A DNA stretch of 29,975 nt, taken from the IMG/VR virus record IMGVR_UViG_3300028400_000024, positions 1 through 29,975 of that record. One strand, 5' to 3'. The translations under genes were made by a program, and so were the position numbers. This document shows positions 1 through 29,975 of the stretch, piece by piece. The notes under the pieces are model-generated. The model made no database searches, was not told where the DNA came from, and saw nothing but the letters and a program-made list of their open reading frames with translations. Every line of letters begins with the position of its first letter. Within the stretch, counting starts at the first letter, position 1. This DNA comes from a virus.

Positions 1-801
1 CCCCCCGGAGGCCCCATAGGCTTGTCGACACGCCTTCAGGACTTGCGTCGGGTGCATTCTGTCATCGTCGTCCCACCACTCCTTGGCATAGTCGCTCCCC
101 TGCCAATTGACATACCCGTATTGTCTTTCATCGAGGTCCGTTTCAAGGAAAAAGGCATTGATGAGAGGATGCCAGGTGTTCGACGGGTCCATGAAATAAG
201 CCGTCGCCCCGTAGTGATTGTTCACATCGTAATTGGCGTCCCTGGATGAGTGCGTGAAGTTGCGAAAGGTGACCGGAGTGTCCGCCCAATTGTCGATGCG
301 GTCGTCATCTTCAGGTGCGCACGCCCCGATGAACAGCGGGTAGGGATAGGCGGACGGGTGGGCGTAGGGCAGAAAGAACCCACCATACATGCCTTGATAC
401 ACCGTGGAAATCTTGGTGGCCATGACGAACCGGCGGCCCGTCAGATGCATCCAGTAGGTGATGGTCACGTTGCTCTCATAGAGGCAGCGCGGCGCATACG
501 GTTGGACATTCACGTGGTTCGTGATGACGGTGGCCGCGGGATCGATGTCCGTCATGCCGTAGATGAAGATTTGCTCGTTCGTCCCCGGTAGGCTGTCATC
601 GAATTTCAGCCCCACGTAAATGCTGTCGGCCGCCGCCAACCCTGGCCCCTTGAGCACCTTTTCAGTGCCGCTCGCGTTGGCCCAGACCTCCTGCCACTGC
701 TGATTGGCGGCACCCAGATCGGCGTTGTTCTTCAGCTCATCGATGAGCTTGTTGAACAACGCCTGCGCCCCGGTCACCGTGCCTGTCAGATATGCGGTCA
801 T
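1..801 (-). CDS. Putative virion structural protein downstream of the tape measure gene (partial, runs off left edge)
   Basis: This open frame starts with ATG at 801 (MTAYLTGTVTGAQALFNKLI) and stays open for 267 codons to base 1, so its C-terminus lies outside the window. The ATG overlaps the tape measure stop codon as TAATG, which indicates translational coupling. I recognise no named domain. The visible part is soluble and rich in Trp, Tyr and Asp, with no signal peptide or membrane segment. Around residues 130-165 there is a distinctive aromatic and Pro-rich stretch (GGFFLPYAHPSAYPYPLFIG). A gene directly after the tape measure gene in a siphovirus usually encodes a distal tail or tail-tip component. 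I infer a tail-associated structural protein from position only. Confidence that it is coding is high because of stop-free length, codon use like its neighbours and the coupled start. Confidence 0.75.
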   Translation of the reverse strand, partial: MTAYLTGTVTGAQALFNKLIDELKNNADLGAANQQWQEVWANASGTEKVLKGPGLAAADSIYVGLKFDDSLPGTNEQIFIYGMTDIDPAATVITNHVNVQPYAPRCLYESNVTITYWMHLTGRRFVMATKISTVYQGMYGGFFLPYAHPSAYPYPLFIGACAPEDDDRIDNWADTPVTFRNFTHSSRDANYDVNNHYGATAYFMDPSNTWHPLINAFFLETDLDERQYGYVNWQGSDYAKEWWDDDDRMHPTQVLKACRQAYGASGG

Positions 802-3800
802 TACTCAAGCGCTCCTTTCACGGCGTCCCTGTTGGCTCGCATCCAATTCAGAATGGCTTGCTCGCCTTGCGGCGTGTCCAGCCCTTCGGAGACGAACTCA
901 CCCGGGTCGATGGTGTTCACCACCTTCACGTTTACCTGCGGCTTGCCCGCTCCCTGTCCCCCTTGCTGGCCGATATTGTTGATGTGCCTTGGGTCGTCTT
1001 GCGTCAAGACCTCTTCGCCCTTCTTCAAGATGGCCGGAACCTCGTTTGGCATCAACCCTGGCAGGCCGCCATCGTGGAAGCGCCGCGCCCCGATAAAGAC
1101 CATCGGATTGACCCGCCGGGGCGGGTTGCCGGAGATAAACCTGGCTCCGACAATGCCGCCCGTATGGCCGAAGCCAAACAGGCCTCCGAGCAGGCCGAAA
1201 CCCCCGAACAGCCCCTGGAACATGCGCATGAAGGCCATTCGGAGCAGCATCTGGCCAAGTTGGATGAGCAATTGGGCGAACACCTGTTGGAGCGCCCTGC
1301 CGACACTCTTGCCCTGTATCATGGCCTGAATGGCCTGCCCGATGGCGTTCGTGAACGAGTTCGCCATCATGGAGGCGAAGTTTCGCATGGTGCCCATCGT
1401 TTGCTGCTGCTGGAGATTGAAGGTCTGAATCTCCATCTTGAGCTGTTGCAGCTTGGCGATGGACGCCTGCGCCTGCGCCCCACCGATGTTCTGGTGGAAT
1501 TGGATGGCCAGGTTGATGGCTTGCAACAGTTGCTGGTTGACCTGCTGGATTTGCATGGCCAACGACTGCATGGCCTGCGTGTCGCCCTGCTGCTGGGCCA
1601 TCTTGTATTGGGCGATCAGGGCCTGCCGCTGCTGCTGAAGGAGGGAAATCCGTTCCTCCATCATGGCGGCCTGCTGCTTGGCCAGATTGAGCTGGTTTTG
1701 CGCGCTCAGCTCCTGGTATTTCATCTGGATGAGCTGCTGCCGCTGGGTCAGCTCCTGCTGGTCCACCTCGCGGCCAGCCCGGGCGGCCTCGGCGATTTCA
1801 CGCTTGCGGGCAGCCTCTATTTCGAGCTGCATGGCCTTTTGGCGTTGCAGCTCGATTTCCTGATTCAGGACCTGAATGCGTTGCTCCAATCCCGCCGCCT
1901 CGTCCGGCTGACCTTCGAGCCTGGCCTGCTTGAGCTGCTCCAGGAGCTGGGCGCGCTGCTTGATCAGCAGGTTCAAGCGCTGTTCGGCCGCCTGCGCCTC
2001 CTGGGCAGCCTGGCGGGCGGCATCGGACAGCTCGCGCATCTTCACCGAGTCCGGGCGGCCCTGCCGCTGGGCCTGGATTTCCATGCGCACCGTGCGCCGG
2101 ATGGCCGCCTCCTGCTCCTTCGTGAGCTGAAGACCAATCCGGCGCAGCCTCTGTTGCTCGCGCAGGACGGCCAGCTCTTCCTTGAGCTTGTCCGGCTGAG
2201 TGGCGTAGCGCTGTTTGACCTGCGCGACTTCCTGCCGCTCCCGAAGCCTAGTGGCCATGTCGGCCTCCCGCTGCCGGAGAGTCTTGGCACGCTTCTTGGC
2301 TTCCTCACCGAACACCCGGACGATGGCTTTCGCCTTGGCCAAGGTATCCGTGGCCTGCCGGTCCATTTCCTTAAGGGTCTTCTGTGCACCGTAGAACGGC
2401 TTGCCCTTGAGGCTCAGGGCCTGCGTCAAGCGACGGTCAACGCGCGCACGCAGTCCACCAAGGGCATTCGGATGATTGCGCAGGAACGTCCGGAAGTCGC
2501 TCCGAAGGTTGGCCTTCATGAGGGTGGCCACCTGCTGGAGGTAATCTTCCGTGGACTTGGCAGTCTTGGCAGCAACCCGGAAATACTTGTCGGCCAGCCC
2601 GCCATACTGCACGCGAGCGTCCGCCGCGAACGAAATGGCCCGCGGGTCATTGGCGAACCGGCTGGCCCCGACGCGATTGAGCATCCCGCGCGCCGGGCGC
2701 ACGATGCGCCTCTCGTAGAACTGAAGCTGAGCCTGGACGAACAGGTCGGCGTGCTGCTGCGCGAGCTGCTTCCATTGCGCTCGGAAAGCAGGGGTGTCGA
2801 AACCCGCCGTGAACATGCGGGCGATCTCCGGGCTTTCCTTCAGGAATTGGCGCAACATCTGACGATTGAGGCCAAGGAAGCCATAGGAATACAGGCTTCG
2901 TCCGCCGAACGTGCCTTCCCGGACCACCTGTGCCGAACCACGTCGCAGGTCGGTGGAACCGGTCTCCATGAGAGCCGTCTGTTTGGCCAGCTCTACCGTG
3001 ACCCCTCGGTTGGTGTCCTGGAAAGTCGCCGAGGTCTTCTGGGCAGCAGCATCGATGGACGCCTTCTGCTCCTGAACAGCTTTCGTCGTGGCCTGCTGCT
3101 CCTGGAGCATCCGGTTGAGGGCATCGACCACCGGCTTGCCGGACTTCCGGGCTTCCTCCATCGCCCGGGCCAGCATGGTCACCATGCGCTGCCGCTCTTC
3201 GGCAGGCAGGGATTCCAGCTTCTGAGATTCCTCGATGATGACCTTGGCACCCTCGTAGGCCTTCATGGCGGCCAGCCGTTCTTCCATGCCAAGAGCGGAC
3301 TTCATGGCCTCTTCGTAGGCCGCCTTGAGCTTGTCGAGAGCGCTTACCTGCTTGTCAATTTCGCTTGTGGCGTTGCCGAGGTCGATGCCCAGCCCTTTGA
3401 GGGCGTTTCCGAAATCCCGGATGGCCTTGCCGGACCGCTTGTAGGCCTCCTCCAGCCCCTGTTGCTCATCTTTCAGCTTCAGGATGCGCTCAGTGGCCTT
3501 CGTGGCCCCGCGCTCGTGCGCTCGAAGAGCCTCCTCGGCCTCCTGGACCGCCCCCTTCTGCTTGATGTAGGCATCGGCGGCCTCGATGACCCGCTGCCGC
3601 AAACCGGGGAAGGCCTCGTCGAGCCGGGCGAGGGTATCGGACATCTCATCCAGCTTCTTCCGAAACTCTTCGGCAGTAATCCTGCCGTCGGCAAAGGCGG
3701 CCAGGAGCGGCTGGAGCTGCCGCCTGGCCTTGGCGGCCAACTCCATCCGGGAGGCTTGCTGTGGGTCGAACAGGGAGCCAAGGAAGTCCCCGAAGGACAC

Positions 3801-9397: not shown

Positions 9398-9759
9398 CAC
9401 GGCACCGGCAGACCAACCGTGTCCGCCGCCTCCATTCTGCTGACCTCTGCCGTTACGGTGATACCGTCGTCAGGCTGAACGTGGTCCACCTGGTAGGCTT
9501 CCCCGGCGGTAACCGAGAAGATGCCACCGCGCTCCGGAACGAGGTCCTCCTTGAGAACGATGATACGCGGCACGGTCTCCCACCGTTCCGCGTAATCATA
9601 GGAGGTTCCCTTCATGTCGGCCAGCGGCTCCATCTTGTAGTGGACCCGGATGAAGACCTCCTGATTGGGACCGGAGGGCGGGACATAGATGGCCTTCACC
9701 CGCATGGTGTCGTGCACCTTGCGGCGCGCCTTGTCCCGTATCTCCCTCCAGGTCGCCAT
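9397..9759 (-). CDS. Head-tail joining protein (lambda FII-like position)
   Basis: I choose the ATG at 9759 (MATWREIRDKARRKVHDTM), which overlaps the stop of the gene before it (TGATG); this gives 120 aa. A basic amphipathic N-terminal helix is followed by a beta-rich body (KAIYVPPSGPNQEVFIRVHY). The C-terminal part has the pattern RGGIFSVTAGEAYQVDHVQP, like small head-tail connector proteins that sit below the portal. FII in lambda stabilises packaged heads and gives the tail its binding site. Position between capsid-associated genes and the gpZ-like gene supports this. Function is inferred mainly from gene order. Confidence 0.6.
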   Translation of the reverse strand: MATWREIRDKARRKVHDTMRVKAIYVPPSGPNQEVFIRVHYKMEPLADMKGTSYDYAERWETVPRIIVLKEDLVPERGGIFSVTAGEAYQVDHVQPDDGITVTAEVSRMEAADTVGLPVP

Positions 9760-9986
9760 CACAGGATGTCAGCGTCCTCGCCAGCCTCCGGCTCGGGTTC
9801 CTTCTTGGCCGCTTTCTTGGCCGCCTTCTTCGGCTTGGCAGTGGCCTTCTTCTCCGGCTCCACGACCTCGGCGGCCCCGGCTTCCAACAGGGCCTTCAGC
9901 GCTTCTGCGGAAACCTCGAATTCCGCCCCGGCGGGATGCACCTGCCCATCAACGATGCAGGTGTGAATGGCTTTCACCTTCGGCAT
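9759..9986 (-). CDS. Small protein with lysine/proline-rich tail, downstream of major capsid gene
   Basis: I take the ATG at 9986 (MPKVKAIHTCIVDGQVHPAG), preceded by GGAG, giving 75 aa; an upstream start at 10028 would run through a strong hairpin and is unlikely. Residues 1-45 form a small domain ending in an Ala/Leu/Glu helix. Residues 46-75 are a low-complexity tail (EKKATAKPKKAAKKAAKK) followed by acidic residues. It occupies the slot of the lambda FI packaging accessory protein, but I see no clear similarity to FI. The tail closely matches repeats in the protein at 25215-25823, and the two genes share a 32-nt exact match. A Lys-Ala-Pro tail of this type could bind DNA or acidic surfaces; that is inference. 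Confidence 0.65.
   Translation of the reverse strand: MPKVKAIHTCIVDGQVHPAGAEFEVSAEALKALLEAGAAEVVEPEKKATAKPKKAAKKAAKKEPEPEAGEDADIL
9787..9853 (-). repeat. Lys-rich coding repeat shared with 25495-25660
   Basis: Bases 9787-9818 are identical over 32 nt to 25495-25526. The adjacent stretch 9814-9853 matches the other locus again near 25605-25645 with one mismatch. The repeats encode KKATAKPKKAAKK-type tails in two different proteins about 15.7 kb apart. Confidence 0.8.
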
Positions 9987-10014
9987 AGGCTTCTCCTTGT
10001 TCTCGATGGATACG

Positions 10015-10041
10015 GGCGGACCACCCACCGGGTGGTCCGCC
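10015..10041 (-). terminator. Perfect 12-bp hairpin after the major capsid gene
   Basis: The arms GGCGGACCACCC and GGGTGGTCCGCC pair perfectly around a 3-nt loop, immediately after the capsid gene stop. No U tract follows on the minus strand (CGTATCC), so this is not a classical intrinsic terminator. It may stabilise the 3' end of capsid mRNA or reduce read-through. Confidence 0.6.
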
Positions 10042-11954: not shown

Positions 11955-12800
11955 GGTCATCCCTCCTTGCGTTGTGAATGCACGATACACCGATTCGACC
12001 CGGTCAACGAGGCCGAGCATCTGCGCCTCTTCCGCCGAAAAATGCGCGGACTCCCACGACCGGATGACTTCCTCCGGAATATCCCGATTCGCCGACACCG
12101 CGTTGATGAAGTCGGCGTAGTGTCTCTCGATGCCCGCCTGGAGACGCGCCCGCTCCTCGTCGGACAAGTCCCGAAGCGCGGAACCATCGGCTTTCTGCTT
12201 CCCGGCATAAAGAAGCGTCGGCTTGACACCGATGTTCTCCAGCGCCCTCTGGAAGGAGAAATGGACGGCAATGACGCCAATGGAACCAGCGTGCCCGCTG
12301 GGTGTCATCGTGATGGTCTTGCCAACCGAGGCCAACCAGTAGGCGGCACTCATGGCGTCCTCCGCCACGACATGAACCGGCTTCACCGCCGCCAGCTCCT
12401 TCAGGGCCTGCGTGGTCTCCGCCAGGCCGCGCACCATGCCGCCCGGGCTGTTGATGTAGAGCACGACCTCCTTGACGGCATCATCCACAGCAGCCCGCCG
12501 GGCCGTGCGCAAAAGGTAGTCATAATCCGTGGCCTTCTCCGTCGCGCCACCCACCTCGCGGTTCATGAGCATCCCCTGAACAGGGATGACAAGACGACCG
12601 GAGGTCACGCGGTAGGGGCGAAAATCTCCGGCCAACGGGTGACTCCAGTAGTCCTCGTCCGACACCATCGGGCCGACGGCCAGCTCCTCCATGTCGGCCA
12701 GGTCTTCCATGATGGCCGGGAGGCCATCGACCGCCGTCGGGGCCATCGCCAACGGCTGAAACGACAGGTCGGCCAGCATCTGCTCAATCGACTTCGGCAT
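11598..12800 (-). CDS. Head maturation protease, S49 family, fused to scaffold (lambda gpC-like)
   Basis: The start at 12800 (MPKSIEQMLADLSFQPLAMA) gives 400 aa. It is preceded by AAGGAG at a good distance and overlaps the portal gene by 17 bp; in-frame starts at 12842 and 12809 are less likely. The S49/SppA protease core is clear: YINSPGG, then DAMSAAYWLASVG carrying the nucleophile Ser, then GSIGVIAVHFSFQRALENIG and AGKQKADG with the probable catalytic Lys. The final ~120 residues are a charged helical scaffold domain that can also be made separately. The protease cleaves scaffold and portal during prohead maturation. It lies between portal and decoration genes, as in lambda (B-C-D). Confidence 0.93.
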   Translation of the reverse strand: MPKSIEQMLADLSFQPLAMAPTAVDGLPAIMEDLADMEELAVGPMVSDEDYWSHPLAGDFRPYRVTSGRLVIPVQGMLMNREVGGATEKATDYDYLLRTARRAAVDDAVKEVVLYINSPGGMVRGLAETTQALKELAAVKPVHVVAEDAMSAAYWLASVGKTITMTPSGHAGSIGVIAVHFSFQRALENIGVKPTLLYAGKQKADGSALRDLSDEERARLQAGIERHYADFINAVSANRDIPEEVIRSWESAHFSAEEAQMLGLVDRVESVYRAFTTQGGMTMPTENEIVAKACAEERNRIRAIVESEEAKAGRMEAALALALSSDMGVDAARQVLAKLPASEETKEEQKAVRSQFEEYMEQMHGEPVPVDADEEAGEQASATGAEFLKAAFRQATGRAA

Positions 12801-14451
12801 CTGGGGCATCTCCTTTCCGTTCGTTCGTGGGCGAGCGTCCATCTTCGTCCTTAATTTCCCGAGGCGACCCGGAGGCCGCGTTCATCATCTTGTCGTCTTT
12901 CGGCTCCTCCAGACCCAGCTTCTCGAAGAGCTTCTTCTCCCGAGCCTGCTGGACGGCCACATCGCGCCAATCCTGACCAAGACGGGCAGCTTCCTTGCGG
13001 CGCGTGCTGAGGCCATACTTGACGCGGAGAACCGCAGCCTGCGTTTCCTTCAGCTCATCCACCTGGCCACGCGCCGCGCCAATCCATTCGGCCTTCGTGT
13101 AGGCCTCCATATTCAGACCGTCATACATGTTGGGCAGCTTGCGGCCCCTCATGCACTCCAGGCCCCCCTTGGACGGGTGAAGATTGGCCACCTCCTCGAA
13201 CCAGCAACGGTAGATCATCGTGGCCAGCTTGTCGGCCACCTCCCGCTTGCGAGCCTGCATTTCCCGCCACACGGTAAGTGCCGCGGCGCGCGCCGAGGAA
13301 TAGTTCGTCTCGGAAAAATCCCGCGTCAGGTCCTCGTAGGACACACCCAGTGTCGCAGCCAGATGACGCAACAAGGATTTCTCGAAGTCCTGCCCGACGC
13401 CACCCGGGGTGCCAAGCTGGTGCAAATGCAGCTTCGTGCCCGGATACAGGTGCGGGATTTTCACACCATCGACCTGCATATGCCTGGCGTTCCCGACATA
13501 CTCCTGCACCGAGCTGAGGAACGCCTGTGCATACTTCTTCACGGCCGCCGCCGGGTCCGTATTCCCGGCACCAAGCGCCATGAACACCTGCTCGGCGGGA
13601 AGTTCGGATTCAATGGCCGCCGCGAAGGAAGCATTCACCACGGCGTTCTGGAGCGTCACCTCGCGGAACTGGCGAGCGATTTTCATTTCCTTCAGGCCCG
13701 CCGCAAGGTCGGAAACGCCGCGCGTCTGACCGGGGCGGCGATGCTTGACGATATGAAACACGCGCGGCCTACCGTTGGGCAGCCGCGCGGCGAGCGCCCG
13801 GTAGGTGTCCGCTGCGCCATAGCTGTCCCGCGCCCGGTCATAGATGTAGTAGAACTTCGGAACGCCTGCCTTGGTCACACGGATGCCTGCGCGCACGGCG
13901 TCATCATGTGCGAACTCCGGTGGCGTGCGCAGACGGAGAAGCTCGATGGGCTGGAAGGCCGTATGCAGCGGACGGTCGGCGTCCCGCATCCACTCGAAGA
14001 CACCGAGAAACTCGCCGGACACCAGATACACGCCGACAGCCAGCCGGATGAGACCCGTGAAAGTCATCCGGCGCGCCGCATCCGGCCAGTTCTCAGGACT
14101 TTCCGCCCACAGGGAGAACTTGGCCTCCACCTCTTCCTGGAACTCCTCTTCCCACACCGGGTCGTCGATGCCCAAAGCCTTCACATCCGGCGTGGCGTTG
14201 AGGCGGAACCACGCGCCAACCACGCTGTTCTGGTGCAGCGTGATGGCATTCTGAACATAGCCGTCGTTGCGCGCCATGTCCTGCGCGCGGGCCTCGATGA
14301 TAGGCCAGTGCGGGATGGCTTCCTGGTCGATTTCCTTGAGGGGAGGCGTCCACGTGGCGAGAGCCTGGGAAATGCGGTCGGCAGCAGCATACCCACCGCC
14401 AACGATGGCTTTCACCTCCACGTCGTCCCCTTCCACAATGATGTCCGGCAT
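12784..14451 (-). CDS. Portal protein (lambda gpB family)
   Basis: This 555-aa protein matches the lambda-type portal family (PF05136). Recognisable segments are NAITLHQNSVVGAWFRLNA near residue 80, TFTGLIRLAVGVYLVSGEFL near 135, and RVFHIVKHRRPGQTRGVSDL near 230. The region SETNYSSARAAALTVWREMQ near 400 is a strong portal hallmark. It forms the dodecameric ring at one capsid vertex through which the terminase pumps DNA. The C-terminal ~90 residues are charged and probably flexible. The ATG at 14451 follows the gpW stop with a 1-bp gap, and the 3' end overlaps the protease gene. Confidence 0.95.
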   Translation of the reverse strand: MPDIIVEGDDVEVKAIVGGGYAAADRISQALATWTPPLKEIDQEAIPHWPIIEARAQDMARNDGYVQNAITLHQNSVVGAWFRLNATPDVKALGIDDPVWEEEFQEEVEAKFSLWAESPENWPDAARRMTFTGLIRLAVGVYLVSGEFLGVFEWMRDADRPLHTAFQPIELLRLRTPPEFAHDDAVRAGIRVTKAGVPKFYYIYDRARDSYGAADTYRALAARLPNGRPRVFHIVKHRRPGQTRGVSDLAAGLKEMKIARQFREVTLQNAVVNASFAAAIESELPAEQVFMALGAGNTDPAAAVKKYAQAFLSSVQEYVGNARHMQVDGVKIPHLYPGTKLHLHQLGTPGGVGQDFEKSLLRHLAATLGVSYEDLTRDFSETNYSSARAAALTVWREMQARKREVADKLATMIYRCWFEEVANLHPSKGGLECMRGRKLPNMYDGLNMEAYTKAEWIGAARGQVDELKETQAAVLRVKYGLSTRRKEAARLGQDWRDVAVQQAREKKLFEKLGLEEPKDDKMMNAASGSPREIKDEDGRSPTNERKGDAPDAEVD

Positions 14452-14452
14452 C

Positions 14453-14680
14453 TCACATCCACACGTTCAGTGGCCCCCCGATAGGCTTGCCTTCCAGTGC
14501 AGCAATCTGGTTGCGCAGCTCTTCGATATAGGCCTTGAGCCGGGAGGCGTTGGCACGAACGTATTCCACCCGCTCACCATTCTGGTCCACCACGACCGAA
14601 GCCATCTGCCCGGTCACCAACTGGTGGTAGGCCGTTTCCGCCTCCTGAAGGCGCGCCTTGAGTTCAACAAGCGTCGTCAT
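14453..14680 (-). CDS. Head completion protein gpW
   Basis: This 75-aa protein has the gpW pattern (PF02831): an N-terminal helix (ELKARLQEAETAYHQLVTGQ), then a beta hairpin (ASVVVDQNGERVEYVRANAS) and a second helix (LKAYIEELRNQIAALEG). gpW in lambda (68 aa) has the same helix-hairpin-helix order. It is added to the filled head below the portal so that FII and the tail can attach. It lies between large terminase and portal, exactly as A-W-B in lambda. The C-terminus ends GGPLNVWM. Confidence 0.93.
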   Translation of the reverse strand: MTTLVELKARLQEAETAYHQLVTGQMASVVVDQNGERVEYVRANASRLKAYIEELRNQIAALEGKPIGGPLNVWM

Positions 14681-14710: not shown

Positions 14711-17347
14711 TCATGCGAGCGCCGCCCCGAGGTCTGCAAGTGTTTTCTCCTCCTGCTCGTCTTCCATACGCCGCCGGAAACCCTCCTGGCCTTCCTCCGG
14801 CGTGAAGACGAGCGAGTTTTCATCCCATTCTACCGCCCACGATGGCGGTGAAGACCAATCTATGTTTGGGAGATTGATTTGCGGCATGAGGAGAGCCGCT
14901 TGCGTGTAGGCCATGAGGTCCCACGCCTCGTTCCGATATTTCGACGGTTTCACCCACACGCCGGTATCAAGCCGATACTCGGCGGTCAGCTCCTCATAGA
15001 ACCAGCGAGGCAACCAGGACGGGAAATTCACACGCCCACCGATGTCCGTGCGAGCCAACCGTTGGTCTATGTCGTCCTTGAGGAGGTCGGAGTTCAACAG
15101 GGCTACCGGGACATCACCTCGCGCCTGGGAAAACTTGTCCTTCTTCTGGGCGTCCGGATAGGTAATGCGGACCCGGGGGCGGTCCAGGGCCTGTCGGGTC
15201 CTCGTGCGCGTCCCTGGCCCGGAAACCGTGAGACCGCGGACAAGGTGGAACCGCCCAACGAGGCCTGGCTCCCAATGGTAGATAGGTTGGCCATTCTCAT
15301 CCACGAACACGTCCTCCTCGGCGTCCCCGAACCGAAGCCACCGGTAGAACCGGTAGGCGTTCGCCGTAACGCCTCGAAGGCCAAGGCTGTCACAAACGAC
15401 GAGCTTGATGGCCATATGCCTCCCGGACCCATCGTCCAGCGGATAGGATTTCAGGATGACCTCGTCCGTAAGCTGCCGCCAATCTTCGTGAAAGGCGTGC
15501 GGCTTGACCCAGTAGTGCTCGCCGTCCGGGTCCTTGCGACGGGACTTGCGAATGCTGAACCGGTCGATGACCCACCAGTCCTCCATGCCACGTTCGGCGC
15601 TGCCGATGCCATGCACCTGCACGACGAACTCGTTCTTCTGCACGTCCACGGCAGCCACCAGGAACCGCACGCCCTTCGGAACCACCTTGACGCCCCAATC
15701 ACTGGACGCCCGGGCTTGTAGTTCCTCTGGCGTCCGCGTGGACCCGAGTTCCGATTTCGGACGATAAGGCAAGGCCAGCGTGGTATTGGTGACCGCCTTG
15801 AGCTTCTGCTCATCACCGGTCTCCTGCCAGGCGCGCTCCGCCCGCAGATACTCTTCGACGATCTGGCTCAACGTCATGAAAGCCGCCGCCGGGCCTTTGA
15901 GCCAGAACGACGCGATTTCCGAGACGGGCGGGTCGCCGACAAGACCCTTCCCGTGAATCCATTTCTGGCCGTCAGGCACCCACCGGGCGTGCTTCCGGTT
16001 CATCTCGTTGCGCCCTGGCACGCCGTCCCGCTCATCCTGATAATAACGCTGGCCGCAGTGTGGGCACTCCACGCGGGCCGTCGCCGCGGCGCGCGTGATG
16101 TCGTCGTGATCATCCCACCGGACGGTCGTCCAATCCGGCTCGAAAGCATTATGGCACTTCACGCACATCCAATACCAGCGACGGCGGTCGCCAAGATTGT
16201 AGAGCGACAGAACGCCCTTGCACCGTGGGGCGGCATGTGCCGTTTCCGGCTGCGCATGGGGGTCCTCGATAGCGAATGACGGAGAGCTTTCGGCGACCGT
16301 CATGGCGGCCCGGCCAAAAGTCGTCGTGCGCTTGCGGGCCAGGTCGAACGGGCTACCCTCACCATCCACGTCGAGCGGCATACGGTCGTAGTCCGACAGC
16401 CAGACAAGCGGCACCGGTTTGCCCGACAGATTGTTCTTCGTTGGCCATGTGATGGTCAGCAGCATCCCCGACCGGAACTGGATTTTACTCATGACCTCGG
16501 ACCGGTGGCCAGGAGCCAATCGGGTGCGAAGCTCCGGCGTGGATTCCAGCAGACGCTTGAGGCGGCGGACATGGAAGTCGCGGGCCTGCTCCTGCGTCTT
16601 CTCCACCAACATCATGTCCTTGGGGTCACAGATGGCCGTGTAGGTAAGAAGGTTCAGGATGCCATCCGTGTTGTGGGTTGGAATGAGGCCTGCCCCCACG
16701 AGGAACAGGTGCCGCCGGTCATCCACCATGATGCACTGTGTGGGCACAGATGGGACCGGCTCGATGGCCGCGAACCGGCGCGCCGGGTGCCACAAGGTCG
16801 CCGGAACGTAAAAACGCCCAAGCTGGCCAGAAGTAGCCGCCCGGCGGAGGTCCTCGGTGGTCACGACCTGATAATTCACCCCGGGGCCGCCGACATGGAC
16901 ACCCCATTGGTGCCGGAAGTCGGCCACCACGGATGAACCATCCTCCAGGACGACCCGGTAGCAAGGTTGGCCAGTGAACACAGGCGAGCGTCCGAGAACC
17001 CGCGCCGTTCGGCCCGATGGCGTCCACACCTCGTCCCCTTCCCGAATAGCCCCCAGGGGCTTCCAATCGCCGGTTGACATGCGCACCGGCGTATCCAGCG
17101 CCAGGGGCTTGCCGCACTGCGCCGGGCCGACGAAAATCGCGCCCGTGTATCTTGGCGACGGCAGGAGGTCCAGAAACTCCTTCATGTATGGCGTGATGGA
17201 AGACCGCCAGGGGCCGATGTAGCTGCCCGGGATATGCACGCGGCGGAACTTCTCCGCCGCCTCCGTCACCGTCATGCGCAACGGCGGACGAAGGGCTTCA
17301 GCGCAATAGGCCACAAGCTCTCGGGTGTCCTTGAAGTCCGTCTTCAA
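14711..17347 (-). CDS. Terminase large subunit (GpA family) containing an intein
   Basis: The 878-aa precursor contains a 146-aa intein at residues 81-226, so the mature protein is predicted at 732 aa, a usual GpA size. The ATPase Walker A loop is split: GPAQCGK (74-80) precedes the intein, and TDG follows at 227. The Walker B-like site is VPLVWLSDYDRM. A Cys4 zinc-type motif (CVKC ... CPHC) separates ATPase and nuclease parts, as in other GpA proteins. The nuclease region has candidate metal-binding Asp residues in AAVDVQKN, VVCDSLG and NEAWDLMAY. The enzyme cuts concatemeric DNA and pumps it into the head. It overlaps the small subunit-like gene by 4 bp (ATGA-type). Because the P-loop Thr is residue +1 after the intein, packaging ATPase should require splicing. 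Confidence 0.95.
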   Translation of the reverse strand: MKTDFKDTRELVAYCAEALRPPLRMTVTEAAEKFRRVHIPGSYIGPWRSSITPYMKEFLDLLPSPRYTGAIFVGPAQCGKPLALDTPVRMSTGDWKPLGAIREGDEVWTPSGRTARVLGRSPVFTGQPCYRVVLEDGSSVVADFRHQWGVHVGGPGVNYQVVTTEDLRRAATSGQLGRFYVPATLWHPARRFAAIEPVPSVPTQCIMVDDRRHLFLVGAGLIPTHNTDGILNLLTYTAICDPKDMMLVEKTQEQARDFHVRRLKRLLESTPELRTRLAPGHRSEVMSKIQFRSGMLLTITWPTKNNLSGKPVPLVWLSDYDRMPLDVDGEGSPFDLARKRTTTFGRAAMTVAESSPSFAIEDPHAQPETAHAAPRCKGVLSLYNLGDRRRWYWMCVKCHNAFEPDWTTVRWDDHDDITRAAATARVECPHCGQRYYQDERDGVPGRNEMNRKHARWVPDGQKWIHGKGLVGDPPVSEIASFWLKGPAAAFMTLSQIVEEYLRAERAWQETGDEQKLKAVTNTTLALPYRPKSELGSTRTPEELQARASSDWGVKVVPKGVRFLVAAVDVQKNEFVVQVHGIGSAERGMEDWWVIDRFSIRKSRRKDPDGEHYWVKPHAFHEDWRQLTDEVILKSYPLDDGSGRHMAIKLVVCDSLGLRGVTANAYRFYRWLRFGDAEEDVFVDENGQPIYHWEPGLVGRFHLVRGLTVSGPGTRTRTRQALDRPRVRITYPDAQKKDKFSQARGDVPVALLNSDLLKDDIDQRLARTDIGGRVNFPSWLPRWFYEELTAEYRLDTGVWVKPSKYRNEAWDLMAYTQAALLMPQINLPNIDWSSPPSWAVEWDENSLVFTPEEGQEGFRRRMEDEQEEKTLADLGAALA
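16670..17107 (-). other. Class 3 mini-intein inserted in the terminase Walker A loop
   Basis: These 146 codons run from Pro1 (PLALDTPVRMSTGDWKPLGA) to the C-terminal His145-Asn146, with Thr as the +1 extein residue. Splicing motifs are present: block A; a GDEVWTPSGR segment; block B (VVADFRHQWGVH) with His66 and Trp68; block F (PTQCIMVDDRRHLFLVG) with Cys125; and block G (AGLIPTHN) with Thr144 just before HN. Class 3 inteins lack an N-terminal Cys/Ser and use an internal Cys at block F position 4, with a Trp at block B position 12 and a Thr at block G position 5; all three are here. The ~50 residues between blocks B and F leave no room for a homing endonuclease. The splicing reaction would restore GPAQCGKTDG. 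Confidence 0.93.
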
Positions 17348-23989: not shown

Positions 23990-25215
23990 GTCAGCTCTCC
24001 TTCAGTTTCGGTTTCATCGAACCAGTCCCGCCGATACTCCGGCTTGGGGCTGGCCTCGGACGCCAGGACAGGCTTCGGTTCGCCCACCTTGAGACGTGGG
24101 GCGATGATACGGTCGTATACCTCCTGCCCCAGCTTCTGCCTGAGCTTCGAGAGTGCCAACAGCTTCCGCTGGAAGCCCTCGTCGCCCAGGATGGCCTCGA
24201 CCTCCCGCTCCACCTCCGGCAGGAAGTCCTTGTCGATGGTGGACGGTGGTCTGCGGCCAAGAACGACCTTCAGGCCCGGGAACTTCTTCCCGTTCAGCGC
24301 GGCCTGAAGGGCAATGTCATGTATCTCGTCGAGCCACTTCTTGATTTCGGCACGGTGGAGAACAAGCCGGGCCACCTGCTCGTCCGAGAGGCCTGCGACA
24401 CCTGACCGCAGGGTAGGCTCATCTGCGTTGACCTCATCGAACGCCAGGTCCACCTGCTTGGCGAACCAGCGATTACGCTCTTCGCATGTCCGCATGGCCG
24501 CCGCCGGGCAGAACTTGCACTGCACCGGGCCGGGGATGCGAGGGGCGTCCTCCTTGCGGGTAGCCCTGGCCGCCTTCTGGATTTCCGGAACCTTGTGAAG
24601 GAGGTCCCGGACGGAAAGCCGCCATTCCCCACCGCCGCCCGGTGCGCGCGGCTGCTCGATGACCAGGATGGCCTCAATGTCCTCCGGCTTCACGGAAAAG
24701 TGCTTGCGCACCTTCTGCCAGGCCCCGAGGGCATACATGATGAGCTGCTCGTTTTCTTCCGGGTGAACCGGCACTCCCACCCCATATTTCCAATCGAAGA
24801 CGACCAGCTCGTTCGTGGCTGGCGTAGCCAGGACCACGTCCGCCGTGCCGAAACACGGCTCGCCCACCAGGGTGGAGAGGTCCAGCCGCTCCTCGATGAG
24901 GCGGATGGTATCCGGAGACGACATGGCCTCAATCCATTCGAGACCCGCTTTCATGTGGCGAGCCATCTCCTCGGAGAACGTGATGGTGCCCTCGTGAACC
25001 TGGCCATCCTCGACCCACCGTGCCGGGTATTCCGCCCCAATGAAGTCCTTCGGGTCGAGACCGAAGGTCAGGACTTCCGCCGCGACCTCGTGAAACACGG
25101 TGCCCTCGGCGGCAGCGAAACCTGCCGTGTCAGGCAGCCCCTGCGTGGCAGCGATGCTGCCAGGGCAACGCATCCAACGGTGGGCGGCGGACGGGGCAAG
25201 CCGGGCGTGGGCCAT
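23986..25215 (-). CDS. DUF2800 family PD-(D/E)XK (RecB/Cas4-like) nuclease
   Basis: The ATG at 25215 overlaps the previous stop (TGATG); a GTG one codon earlier is possible. It gives 409 aa. The start has APSAAHRWMRCPGSIAAT, typical of DUF2800. The nuclease motifs are the His in EGTVFHEVAAE, the Asp in FGTADVVLAT, the D-x-K in VVFDWKYGVGVPV, and the downstream NEQLIMYALGAW helix. Cysteines lie at the N-terminus (RCPGS) and in CKFCPAAAMRTC, a C ... CxxC-x7-C arrangement like the Fe-S cluster of Cas4/AddB nucleases. It is expected to be a DNA exonuclease working beside the DUF2815 protein, in a common phage replication-recombination pair. Confidence 0.93.
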   Translation of the reverse strand: MAHARLAPSAAHRWMRCPGSIAATQGLPDTAGFAAAEGTVFHEVAAEVLTFGLDPKDFIGAEYPARWVEDGQVHEGTITFSEEMARHMKAGLEWIEAMSSPDTIRLIEERLDLSTLVGEPCFGTADVVLATPATNELVVFDWKYGVGVPVHPEENEQLIMYALGAWQKVRKHFSVKPEDIEAILVIEQPRAPGGGGEWRLSVRDLLHKVPEIQKAARATRKEDAPRIPGPVQCKFCPAAAMRTCEERNRWFAKQVDLAFDEVNADEPTLRSGVAGLSDEQVARLVLHRAEIKKWLDEIHDIALQAALNGKKFPGLKVVLGRRPPSTIDKDFLPEVEREVEAILGDEGFQRKLLALSKLRQKLGQEVYDRIIAPRLKVGEPKPVLASEASPKPEYRRDWFDETETEGELT

Positions 25216-25823
25216 CACACAATCTCCGCGTCCTCGTTCTCCTTGACGTAGAGGTCGTAGGCCTCCCGGAGTTTGCCCATGACTTCGTCGATGTTGTCGT
25301 CAGGCACCTCCTGAAGACGCGACACCCCGGCTTCCTCCAGCGTGGACTTGGCTGCGCGGAAGAACTGACGATACACGGCAGGCCCTTTCTCCCGGGCGGA
25401 GGTAAGCATGTTGGACAGTTCCTTGGCCGCCTGGACCTTGGGGTTGTCCTGGTGGATTTCGACCACCTTTTCCTCCGGCTCGATGTGGGTCTCTTCCGGC
25501 TCGGGTTCCTTCTTGGCCGCTTTCTTCGGCTTGGTGGAGGTCTCATCCTTCTTGGCCGCCTTCTTCGGCTTGGCGGTAGCCTTCTTCTCTTCCGGCTCGG
25601 GTTCCTTCTTGGCCGCCTTCTTCGGCTTGGCGGTGGCCTTCTTCTCCTCCGGCCCCGGCTCGTCCTTCTTCTCGGCCTTCACCTCGGCCATCATCTCATC
25701 GGCCTTGTGGCTCCCCTTCAGAGCCTCAGCATGGATTTCGATGGCCCGCGAGAATTGGTTCAGGGCCGCCGTGTGGGCCTCCAGAGCCTTCGTGAGGCCC
25801 GAAATAAGGGCGTCAAGGGACAT
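25215..25823 (-). CDS. Protein with lysine-rich KKAAKK repeats, unknown function
   Basis: This 202-aa protein has a helical N-terminal part (residues 1-55), then a low-complexity stretch (about 50-120) with three repeats of the type KKATAKPKKAAKKEPEPE. The C-terminal part (about 130-202) is a helical domain with REKGPAVYRQFFRAAKSTLE. The Lys-Ala-Pro repeats resemble histone H1-like or HU-type tails and could bind DNA without sequence preference, perhaps as a replication accessory or DNA-compacting factor. GGAG lies before the ATG at 25823. The repeats are related at DNA level to those of the small gene next to the capsid gene. Function is inferred only. Confidence 0.8.
   Translation of the reverse strand: MSLDALISGLTKALEAHTAALNQFSRAIEIHAEALKGSHKADEMMAEVKAEKKDEPGPEEKKATAKPKKAAKKEPEPEEKKATAKPKKAAKKDETSTKPKKAAKKEPEPEETHIEPEEKVVEIHQDNPKVQAAKELSNMLTSAREKGPAVYRQFFRAAKSTLEEAGVSRLQEVPDDNIDEVMGKLREAYDLYVKENEDAEIV
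25495..25660 (-). repeat. Imperfect tandem repeats encoding Lys-Ala-Pro segments
   Basis: Copies of a unit encoding KKATAKPKKAAKKEPEPEE occur here, interrupted by a variant (KKDETSTKPKKAAKK). One stretch is identical over 32 nt to 9787-9818. Confidence 0.75.
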
Positions 25824-29599: not shown

Positions 29600-29844
29600 A
29601 ATTCTACATTTGTTCACCGTCGGCGGCCGCCCCCGGCGGGGCCGTTCCGAGCTTGTCGGAGGGCCGGTCCGGCTGCGAGCCGGGTGCGCCGGGAGGCCGG
29701 ATGACTGTTCCGGGATGGCTGGCGAGCCGGACCTCGAGAAGCGCGGCTCGGCGTTCCCCGCGCCCCCGCGCACCCGCGCGTAAGGACCCGGAGCGCCCCC
29801 TCGATGGCTGCTGTCATGCATAGCCGGTTGTCGTTTTGTTCGCA
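29600..29844. other. GC-rich stretch with no supported gene
   Basis: Composition changes sharply from AT-rich to very GC-rich at about 29620. Open frames here have low-complexity translations and no recognisable domain or ribosome binding site, so I annotate no gene. I see no tRNA or attachment site. Confidence 0.5.
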
Positions 29845-29975
29845 CCGACGGCCACACGGCCACCGACGGCCACACGGCCACCGATGGCCACACGGCCACC
29901 AGGGCAGGCGAGACGGCCACCGATGGCCACACGGCCACCAGGGCAGGCGAGACGGCCACCGATGGCCACACGGCC
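29845..29975. repeat. Tandem array of 18-bp and 21-bp units, cut by the window end
   Basis: The units are CCGA(C/T)GGCCACACGGCCA (18 bp) at 29845, 29863, 29881, 29920 and 29959 (last one short by 1 bp), and a 21-bp variant starting CCAGGGCAGGCGAGACGGCC at 29899 and 29938. The last copies form a 39-bp composite repeat. Each 18-mer contains TGGCC-ACAC-GGCCA or its one-base variant, a short hairpin. The array runs to the window edge, so its real length is unknown. Confidence 0.85.

What the first reader, a model, noticed from the sequence alone, without database searches (positions are those of the whole stretch)
16670..17107. Class 3 mini-intein in the catalytic P-loop of a phage large terminase
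Seen: the Walker A loop reads GPAQCGK, then a 146-residue insert from Pro to His-Asn, then Thr-Asp-Gly. The insert has intein blocks A, B, F and G and the class 3 set: Trp68 (two residues after the block B His), Cys125 at block F position 4 and Thr144 just before HN, with no N-terminal Cys/Ser. Known: class 3 inteins use the block F Cys as first nucleophile and have been proposed to originate in phages. Inference: packaging ATPase activity is off until splicing, because the P-loop Thr is the +1 residue; the lack of an endonuclease suggests a fixed or domesticated element.
Basis: partly seen in the sequence, partly recalled or inferred. Interest (0 to 1): 0.85.

Follow-up and report, generated by a model that had tools for sequence, protein, structure and literature searches.

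The report
Class 3 mini-intein in phage terminase
A phage's DNA-packaging motor gene carries a small protein segment that almost certainly cuts itself out and rejoins the motor's ATP-binding loop; this kind of self-splicing element is already well known, but here it sits, in a stripped-down form, in a motor family for which the papers I could search do not describe it.

Summary
Confirmed. Window 16670-17107 (minus strand) is a 146-residue insert placed exactly between Lys80 and Thr227 of the Walker A loop (GPAQCGK|T) of a GpA-family large terminase in a Casjensviridae-like phage fragment. It is a class 3 mini-intein: sequence match to the crystallised M. smegmatis DnaBi1 class 3 intein (E 5.5e-24), confident HINT-fold model (pLDDT 95.8) whose best PDB matches are class 3 inteins, and the complete Trp68-Cys125-Thr144 signature with His66, His145, Asn146, +1 Thr and Pro (no nucleophile) at position 1. 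Eight annotated relatives lack the insert and read straight through.

New from this work: the site is a recurrent class 3 target in GpA terminases. Of the 80 nearest terminases in IMG/VR five carry class 3 inteins at the same bond, all endonuclease-sized (about 340 aa or more); two other mini versions (Marinobacter phiTHAF39, a proteobacterial MAG) were found. The MAG one nests among endonuclease-bearing inteins, so endonuclease loss has happened more than once. The window intein keeps both flanks of the lost endonuclease.

Splicing, ATPase silencing before splicing, and any redox control are inferred. A new member of a known kind; interest modest.

The parts
14711..17347 (-). Large terminase precursor gene (TTG start), 878 aa; GpA family; predicted spliced product 732 aa
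   Evidence: PF05876 E 1.1e-56, PF20454 E 1.5e-55; PHROG 15 terminase large subunit E 2.6e-200
17108..17347 (-). N-extein, residues 1-80, ending GPAQCGK (first part of Walker A)
   Evidence: alignment to intein-free relatives
16670..17107 (-). Class 3 mini-intein, 146 aa (Pro1...Thr144-His145-Asn146)
16961..16963 (-). Cys49, aligned with Cys48 of DnaBi1 (its redox partner); the only other Cys in the intein
   Evidence: PMC6195587
16904..16912 (-). Block B catalytic His66 - Gln67 - Trp68 (Trp of the WCT triplet)
   Evidence: sequence; His and Trp in 68/68 related class 3 inteins
16733..16735 (-). Block F Cys125, predicted first nucleophile
   Evidence: sequence; aligned with Cys118 of DnaBi1
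16670..16678 (-). Block G Thr144-His145-Asn146
   Evidence: sequence
16667..16669 (-). Walker A Thr227, +1 residue of the C-extein
   Evidence: relatives have T or S here
14711..16669 (-). C-extein (rest of ATPase domain, nuclease domain) with stop codon
17344..18057 (-). Small terminase gene, overlapping the terL start
   Evidence: PHROG 141 E 2.6e-30
14453..14680 (-). Small ORF (75 aa) in the position of the head-tail joining (gpW-like) gene of relatives
   Evidence: gene order as in S-ESS1 and AchV4
12784..14451 (-). Portal protein gene
   Evidence: PHROG 21 E 8.2e-118

Best explanation
The insert is a cis-splicing class 3 mini-intein at the Lys|Thr bond of the Walker A loop of a GpA-type large terminase. 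Mechanism, inferred from the family: the precursor is translated whole; Cys125, activated by His66 and Thr144, attacks the Lys80-Pro81 bond (block F branched thioester); Thr227 (+1) takes over the N-extein (branched ester); Asn146 cyclises with help of His145; the exteins are joined as GPAQCGK-TDG, giving a 732-aa terminase with an intact P-loop. Before splicing the P-loop is broken, so packaging ATPase should be off. The element most likely descends from an endonuclease-bearing class 3 intein of the kind still found at this same bond in related terminases, and has lost about 190 residues of endonuclease between blocks B and F. Shown here: insert, homology, predicted fold, motifs, site, empty and occupied relatives. 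Inferred: splicing itself, ATPase silencing, history of the loss.
For: Sequence match to class 3 DnaB inteins 6bs8 and 6rix, 43% and 38% identity. AF2 model pLDDT 95.8, pTM 0.88; top seven PDB matches are class 3 DnaB inteins, TM 0.79-0.82 by query and 0.88-0.93 by target. WCT plus His66, His145, Asn146 complete; these positions are invariant in 68 of 68 related inteins gathered here (THN and Cys were partly imposed by the search pattern and my C-end filter, Trp68 and His66 were not). Empty sites in eight annotated relatives and in most of the 80 nearest IMG/VR terminases. Endonuclease-length inteins at the identical bond in Casjensviridae-like L141, L143, L144, L196 and L217/L026 and in many other GpA terminases; 21 of 26 scanned C-exteins hit GpA_ATPase. 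Alignment to L143 keeps the pre-endonuclease VTTE region and the post-endonuclease RRF-AIxPV strand with the middle missing. Frame open, codon use within the range of the exteins.
Against: No direct proof of splicing. The intein lies on a long branch and its nearest intein is unresolved. It departs from its relatives in block A (VRMSTGDWKPLG against the usual xPTPxGWTTMG). A class 3-like intein in Arthrobacter is a reported pseudogene (PMC3196547, title and abstract only), so signature residues alone do not guarantee activity.
Confidence: 0.93

Rival explanations
1. The intein has decayed: it folds but no longer splices (or only cleaves), and the packaging enzyme is dead, for example in a defective prophage.
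For: Long end branch and unusual block A; the record is a 30-kb fragment, so completeness of the phage cannot be judged.
Against: Every catalytic residue intact, frame open through 878 codons, confident fold; terL is essential in tailed phages (general knowledge); neighbouring packaging, head and tail genes are all open.
Confidence: 0.04
2. It splices by direct attack of Thr+1 on the N-junction (class 2 route), with Cys125 not the first nucleophile.
For: No nucleophile at position 1, as in class 2.
Against: Complete WCT triplet and closest homology to proven class 3 inteins; in three class 3 mini-inteins the mutation data supported the block F Cys pathway, and a natural +1 Cys could not replace it (PMC5222942).
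Confidence: 0.02
3. It is not an intein but a permanent domain insertion, or an assembly chimera, in the terminase gene.
For: Pfam and NCBIfam have no intein hit above cut-off; a single record.
Against: Homology, fold and motifs of a HINT splicing domain; same bond occupied by inteins in independent records; uniform codon use.
Confidence: 0.01

Closest known systems
M. smegmatis DnaBi1 and M. chimaera DnaB1 class 3 mini-inteins (PDB 6bs8, 6rix)
   Same: Class 3 WCT set, mini size (139 and 145 aa against 146), HINT fold, P-loop insertion (for DnaBi1), Cys49/Cys125 aligned with Cys48/Cys118 of DnaBi1
   Different: Host protein is bacterial DnaB helicase, +1 is Ser in DnaBi1; about 40% identity; not sisters in the trees
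Mycobacteriophage TerL inteins, sites TerL1-a to -e (PMC5050341)
   Same: Phage large terminase; TerL1-a sits between the P-loop Lys and Thr; some TerL inteins are class 3
   Different: Those are Terminase_1/6 proteins, and the two tested for cleavage had active endonucleases. That paper found no inteins in other terminase families of mycobacteriophages; here the terminase is GpA and the endonuclease is gone
Endonuclease-length class 3 inteins in GpA terminases at the same bond (L141, L143, L144, L196, L217/L026, Acidovorax phage ACF1, Endozoicomonas Mp262 plasmid)
   Same: Same terminase family, same insertion bond, same class 3 residues
   Different: About 340-370 aa; residue 1 is Ser, Ala, Cys or Pro
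Marinobacter plasmid-phage phiTHAF39 GpA mini-intein (L014)
   Same: 140-aa class 3 mini-intein, related terminase, same bond
   Different: 38.7% intein identity; not its sister in the intein trees

Membership tests
Class 3 inteins | No Cys/Ser/Thr nucleophile at intein position 1 | tested here: met
   Pro1
Class 3 inteins | Trp at block B:12, Cys at block F:4, Thr at block G:5 | tested here: met
   Trp68, Cys125, Thr144, in register with 6bs8/6rix
Class 3 inteins | Block B His, penultimate His, terminal Asn, +1 Ser/Thr/Cys | tested here: met
   His66, His145, Asn146, Thr+1
Class 3 inteins | HINT fold closest to class 3 structures | tested here: met
   predicted model pLDDT 95.8; 6bs8 Foldseek E 6.5e-13
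Class 3 inteins | Block F Cys branched intermediate and splicing | not testable with these tools
   needs expression and mutants
Mini-inteins | No homing endonuclease between blocks B and F | tested here: met
   146 aa against 339 aa or more in relatives with the endonuclease region
GpA-type large terminase | GpA ATPase and nuclease domains above Pfam cut-off | tested here: met
   192.7 and 189 bits against 25.6 and 22.5
Casjensviridae | Packaging and replication genes and their order as in members of the family | tested here: met
   terS-terL-small head-tail ORF-portal-head protease-major head; helicase, DNA polymerase, exonuclease; best annotated terminase matches are members
Casjensviridae | Formal placement (whole genome similarity) | not tested
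   only a 29,975-base fragment is held
Redox-switched inteins (DnaBi1 type) | Second Cys able to form a disulfide with the catalytic Cys | tested here: inconclusive
   Cys49 aligns with Cys48 of DnaBi1, but Cys is at this position in 60 of 68 related inteins, so it is no special sign

The most novel reading that the evidence does not exclude
Splicing is conditional: under oxidising stress Cys125 is trapped in a disulfide with Cys49 (as in DnaBi1) or with the extein Cys at -3 (QCGK, the position of known Cys-3 redox traps), so the phage holds back DNA packaging until the cell is reducing. The endonuclease-free intein would then be a retained packaging switch. The -3 Cys is common in intein-free relatives and is also in the intein-bearing L141 and L144, so it is weak evidence.
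Probability: 0.1. Interest if true: 0.6.

Novelty: new member of a known kind. Interest (0 to 1): 0.3.

Why it matters
It adds GpA-type terminases of Casjensviridae-like phages to the hosts of class 3 inteins and shows that the Walker A Lys|Thr bond of this family is a repeated target, with empty, endonuclease-bearing and mini forms side by side. That set makes gain and loss of the endonuclease, and the question whether endonuclease-free inteins persist for a reason, testable in one gene. A compact, confidently modelled class 3 mini-intein with a +1 Thr may also be of use as a splicing tool.

Tried and rejected
Pfam and NCBIfam scans for an intein model: nothing above cut-off, only a weak hit to an intein-containing radical SAM model. 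Protein scan of IMG/VR with the intein alone: one distant helicase intein; with the terminase alone: none. Nucleotide pattern for GK-PLALDTP: three unrelated hits. Intein trees to find the donor: window intein on a long branch, few columns, nearest neighbour not resolved (L036 in both trees, weak); one clade of the Casjensviridae-type inteins neither clearly rejected nor supported (p-AU 0.053). So I claim neither vertical descent from L143/L144 nor transfer from DnaB. Composition test for recent arrival: intein G+C 66.4% against 62.2% in the exteins, codon use within the extein range: no sign either way. The paper of Tori and Perler 2011 is not held and the supplementary tables of PMC5050341 were not read, so prior mention of GpA inteins there cannot be excluded.

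Full report
Observation. The reverse strand of 14711-17347 encodes an 878-codon open frame (TTG start with an SD-like GGAGGA a few bases upstream and overlap with the terS stop). It is a GpA-type large terminase: PF05876 E 1.1e-56 and PF20454 E 1.5e-55, both far above cut-off, PHROG 15 E 2.6e-200. Residues 81-226 (window 16670-17107) interrupt its Walker A loop: GPAQCGK | PLALDTP...PTHN | TDG.

Empty site. Eight annotated terminases of Casjensviridae or like phages (Synechococcus S-ESS1, Loktanella pCB2051-A, Sphingomonas Carli, Achromobacter AchV4, Ruegeria V18, Pseudomonas SS2019XI, Serratia JS26, Rhizobium RHph_X2_30) align at 45-49% identity and lack exactly these 146 residues, reading FxGPA[QR]xGK[TS]D. 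The terminase tree puts the window among intein-free members (97/91 support). Gene order (terS, terL, a 75-aa ORF in the gpW place, portal, head protease, major head; helicase, DNA polymerase and exonuclease on the other side) also fits that family. The record is a 29,975-base virus fragment.

Identity of the insert. phmmer against PDB sequences returns M. smegmatis DnaBi1 (6bs8, E 5.5e-24) and M. chimaera DnaB1 (6rix, E 1.8e-22), almost end to end; both are class 3 inteins (PMC6195587, PMC7664689). An AlphaFold2 model on an alignment of 25 inteins has mean pLDDT 95.8 and pTM 0.88; its seven best PDB matches are class 3 DnaB inteins, followed by gp41-1 and other HINT domains. The class 3 signature is defined as Trp, Cys, Thr at B:12, F:4, G:5 with no nucleophile at A:1 (PMC5050341, PMC7891396). 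Here: Pro1, Trp68, Cys125, Thr144, with His66, His145, Asn146 and +1 Thr. In 68 distinct inteins compared here the columns of His66, Trp68, Cys125, Thr144, His145 and Asn146 never vary; the THN end was partly imposed by the search pattern and by my filter, and the Cys by my filter, so only His66 and Trp68 are free of that bias.

Spread of the site. A scan with an alignment of four GpA-intein junctions found class 3 inteins at the Walker A bond in dozens of viral and bacterial contigs, mostly 335-400 aa with an endonuclease-sized middle; 21 of 26 C-exteins scanned hit GpA_ATPase. Many lie in alphaproteobacterial, betaproteobacterial and acidobacterial genomes, presumably prophages. Among the 80 IMG/VR terminases most like the window's, five have such inteins at the same bond (L141, L143, L144, L196, L217, the last being the same contig as L026), nearly all others show the uninterrupted motif, and none has a mini form. 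Mini forms at this bond: the window (146 aa), Marinobacter phiTHAF39 (140 aa, L014) and a proteobacterial MAG (159 aa, L079). L079 nests inside an endonuclease-bearing clade in the intein trees, which points to a loss independent of the others.

Loss of the endonuclease in the window. Against L143 (339 aa) the window keeps both sides (the VTTE helix region; the ARRF-AAIEPV strand) and lacks the stretch between. 82.5% of 1701 class 3 inteins were reported to have LAGLIDADG motifs (PMC7891396), so mini forms are the minority but known: three have been shown to splice (PMC5222942). Whether the window element is retained for a benefit or merely not yet lost cannot be decided: exact deletion of an intein from a P-loop is a demanding event, which alone can keep it (inference).

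Mechanism. From the characterised class 3 inteins: block F Cys attack, transfer to +1, Asn cyclisation, amide formation, in that order (PMC5222942), with a Cys-His-Thr triad (PMC7664689). All residues needed are present; splicing is inferred. An intein in the P-loop of P. horikoshii RadA disrupts ATPase function (cited in PMC6195587), so silence of the unspliced terminase is likely, not shown.

Redox lead. DnaBi1 is paused by a Cys48-Cys118 disulfide (PMC6195587). The window intein has just two Cys, 49 and 125, in register with those two. But Cys49 is at this place in 60 of 68 relatives, so it does not single this intein out. The N-extein also has Cys at -3, the position used in the engineered Ssp DnaE trap and in the natural MoaA one (PMC3922620); those trap Cys1, which is absent here, and Cys at -3 is frequent in intein-free relatives and also found in L141 and L144. 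I keep this as a testable possibility at 0.1.

Relation to known work. P-loop inteins in phage terminases (TerL1-a) and class 3 inteins in TerL are described (PMC5050341). That study found terminase inteins in mycobacteriophages only in Terminase_1, Terminase_6 and one terminase-like family. I found no paper in the library naming GpA-type or Casjensviridae inteins, but the library is partial. Verdict: real, correctly read, a new member of a known kind.

Noticed in passing
L026-L051 and L079-L113: Class 3 inteins at the Walker A bond of GpA terminases are widespread in alphaproteobacterial, betaproteobacterial and acidobacterial contigs; in about half the -1 residue is Gly or Ala, not Lys (AAQVGA|P, KGAQVGG|P), so the bond is kept although the loop differs.
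   Followed up: partly
L079:3612-4088: A 159-aa class 3 mini-intein in a GpA terminase nested among endonuclease-bearing inteins: an independent, seemingly recent endonuclease loss.
   Followed up: partly
L080:3498-3893: A 132-aa class 3-like mini-intein in a Conexibacter chromosome with Cys at position 1 as well as the block F Cys, in a protein whose N-extein end is not a P-loop.
   Followed up: no
L015 (Acidovorax phage ACF1 terminase, 208-3432): Full-length intein with the WCT set but also Cys at position 1; it may be able to use either start.
   Followed up: no
window 25215-25823 (-) and 9759-10028 (-): Two separate small phage genes share Lys/Ala-rich KKATAKPKKAAKK-type repeats, like histone H1 tails; 57-base repeat at 25546-25653.
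   Followed up: no
window 29843-29975: 39-base tandem repeat, about 3.5 copies, runs to the end of the record and probably is where assembly stopped.
   Followed up: no
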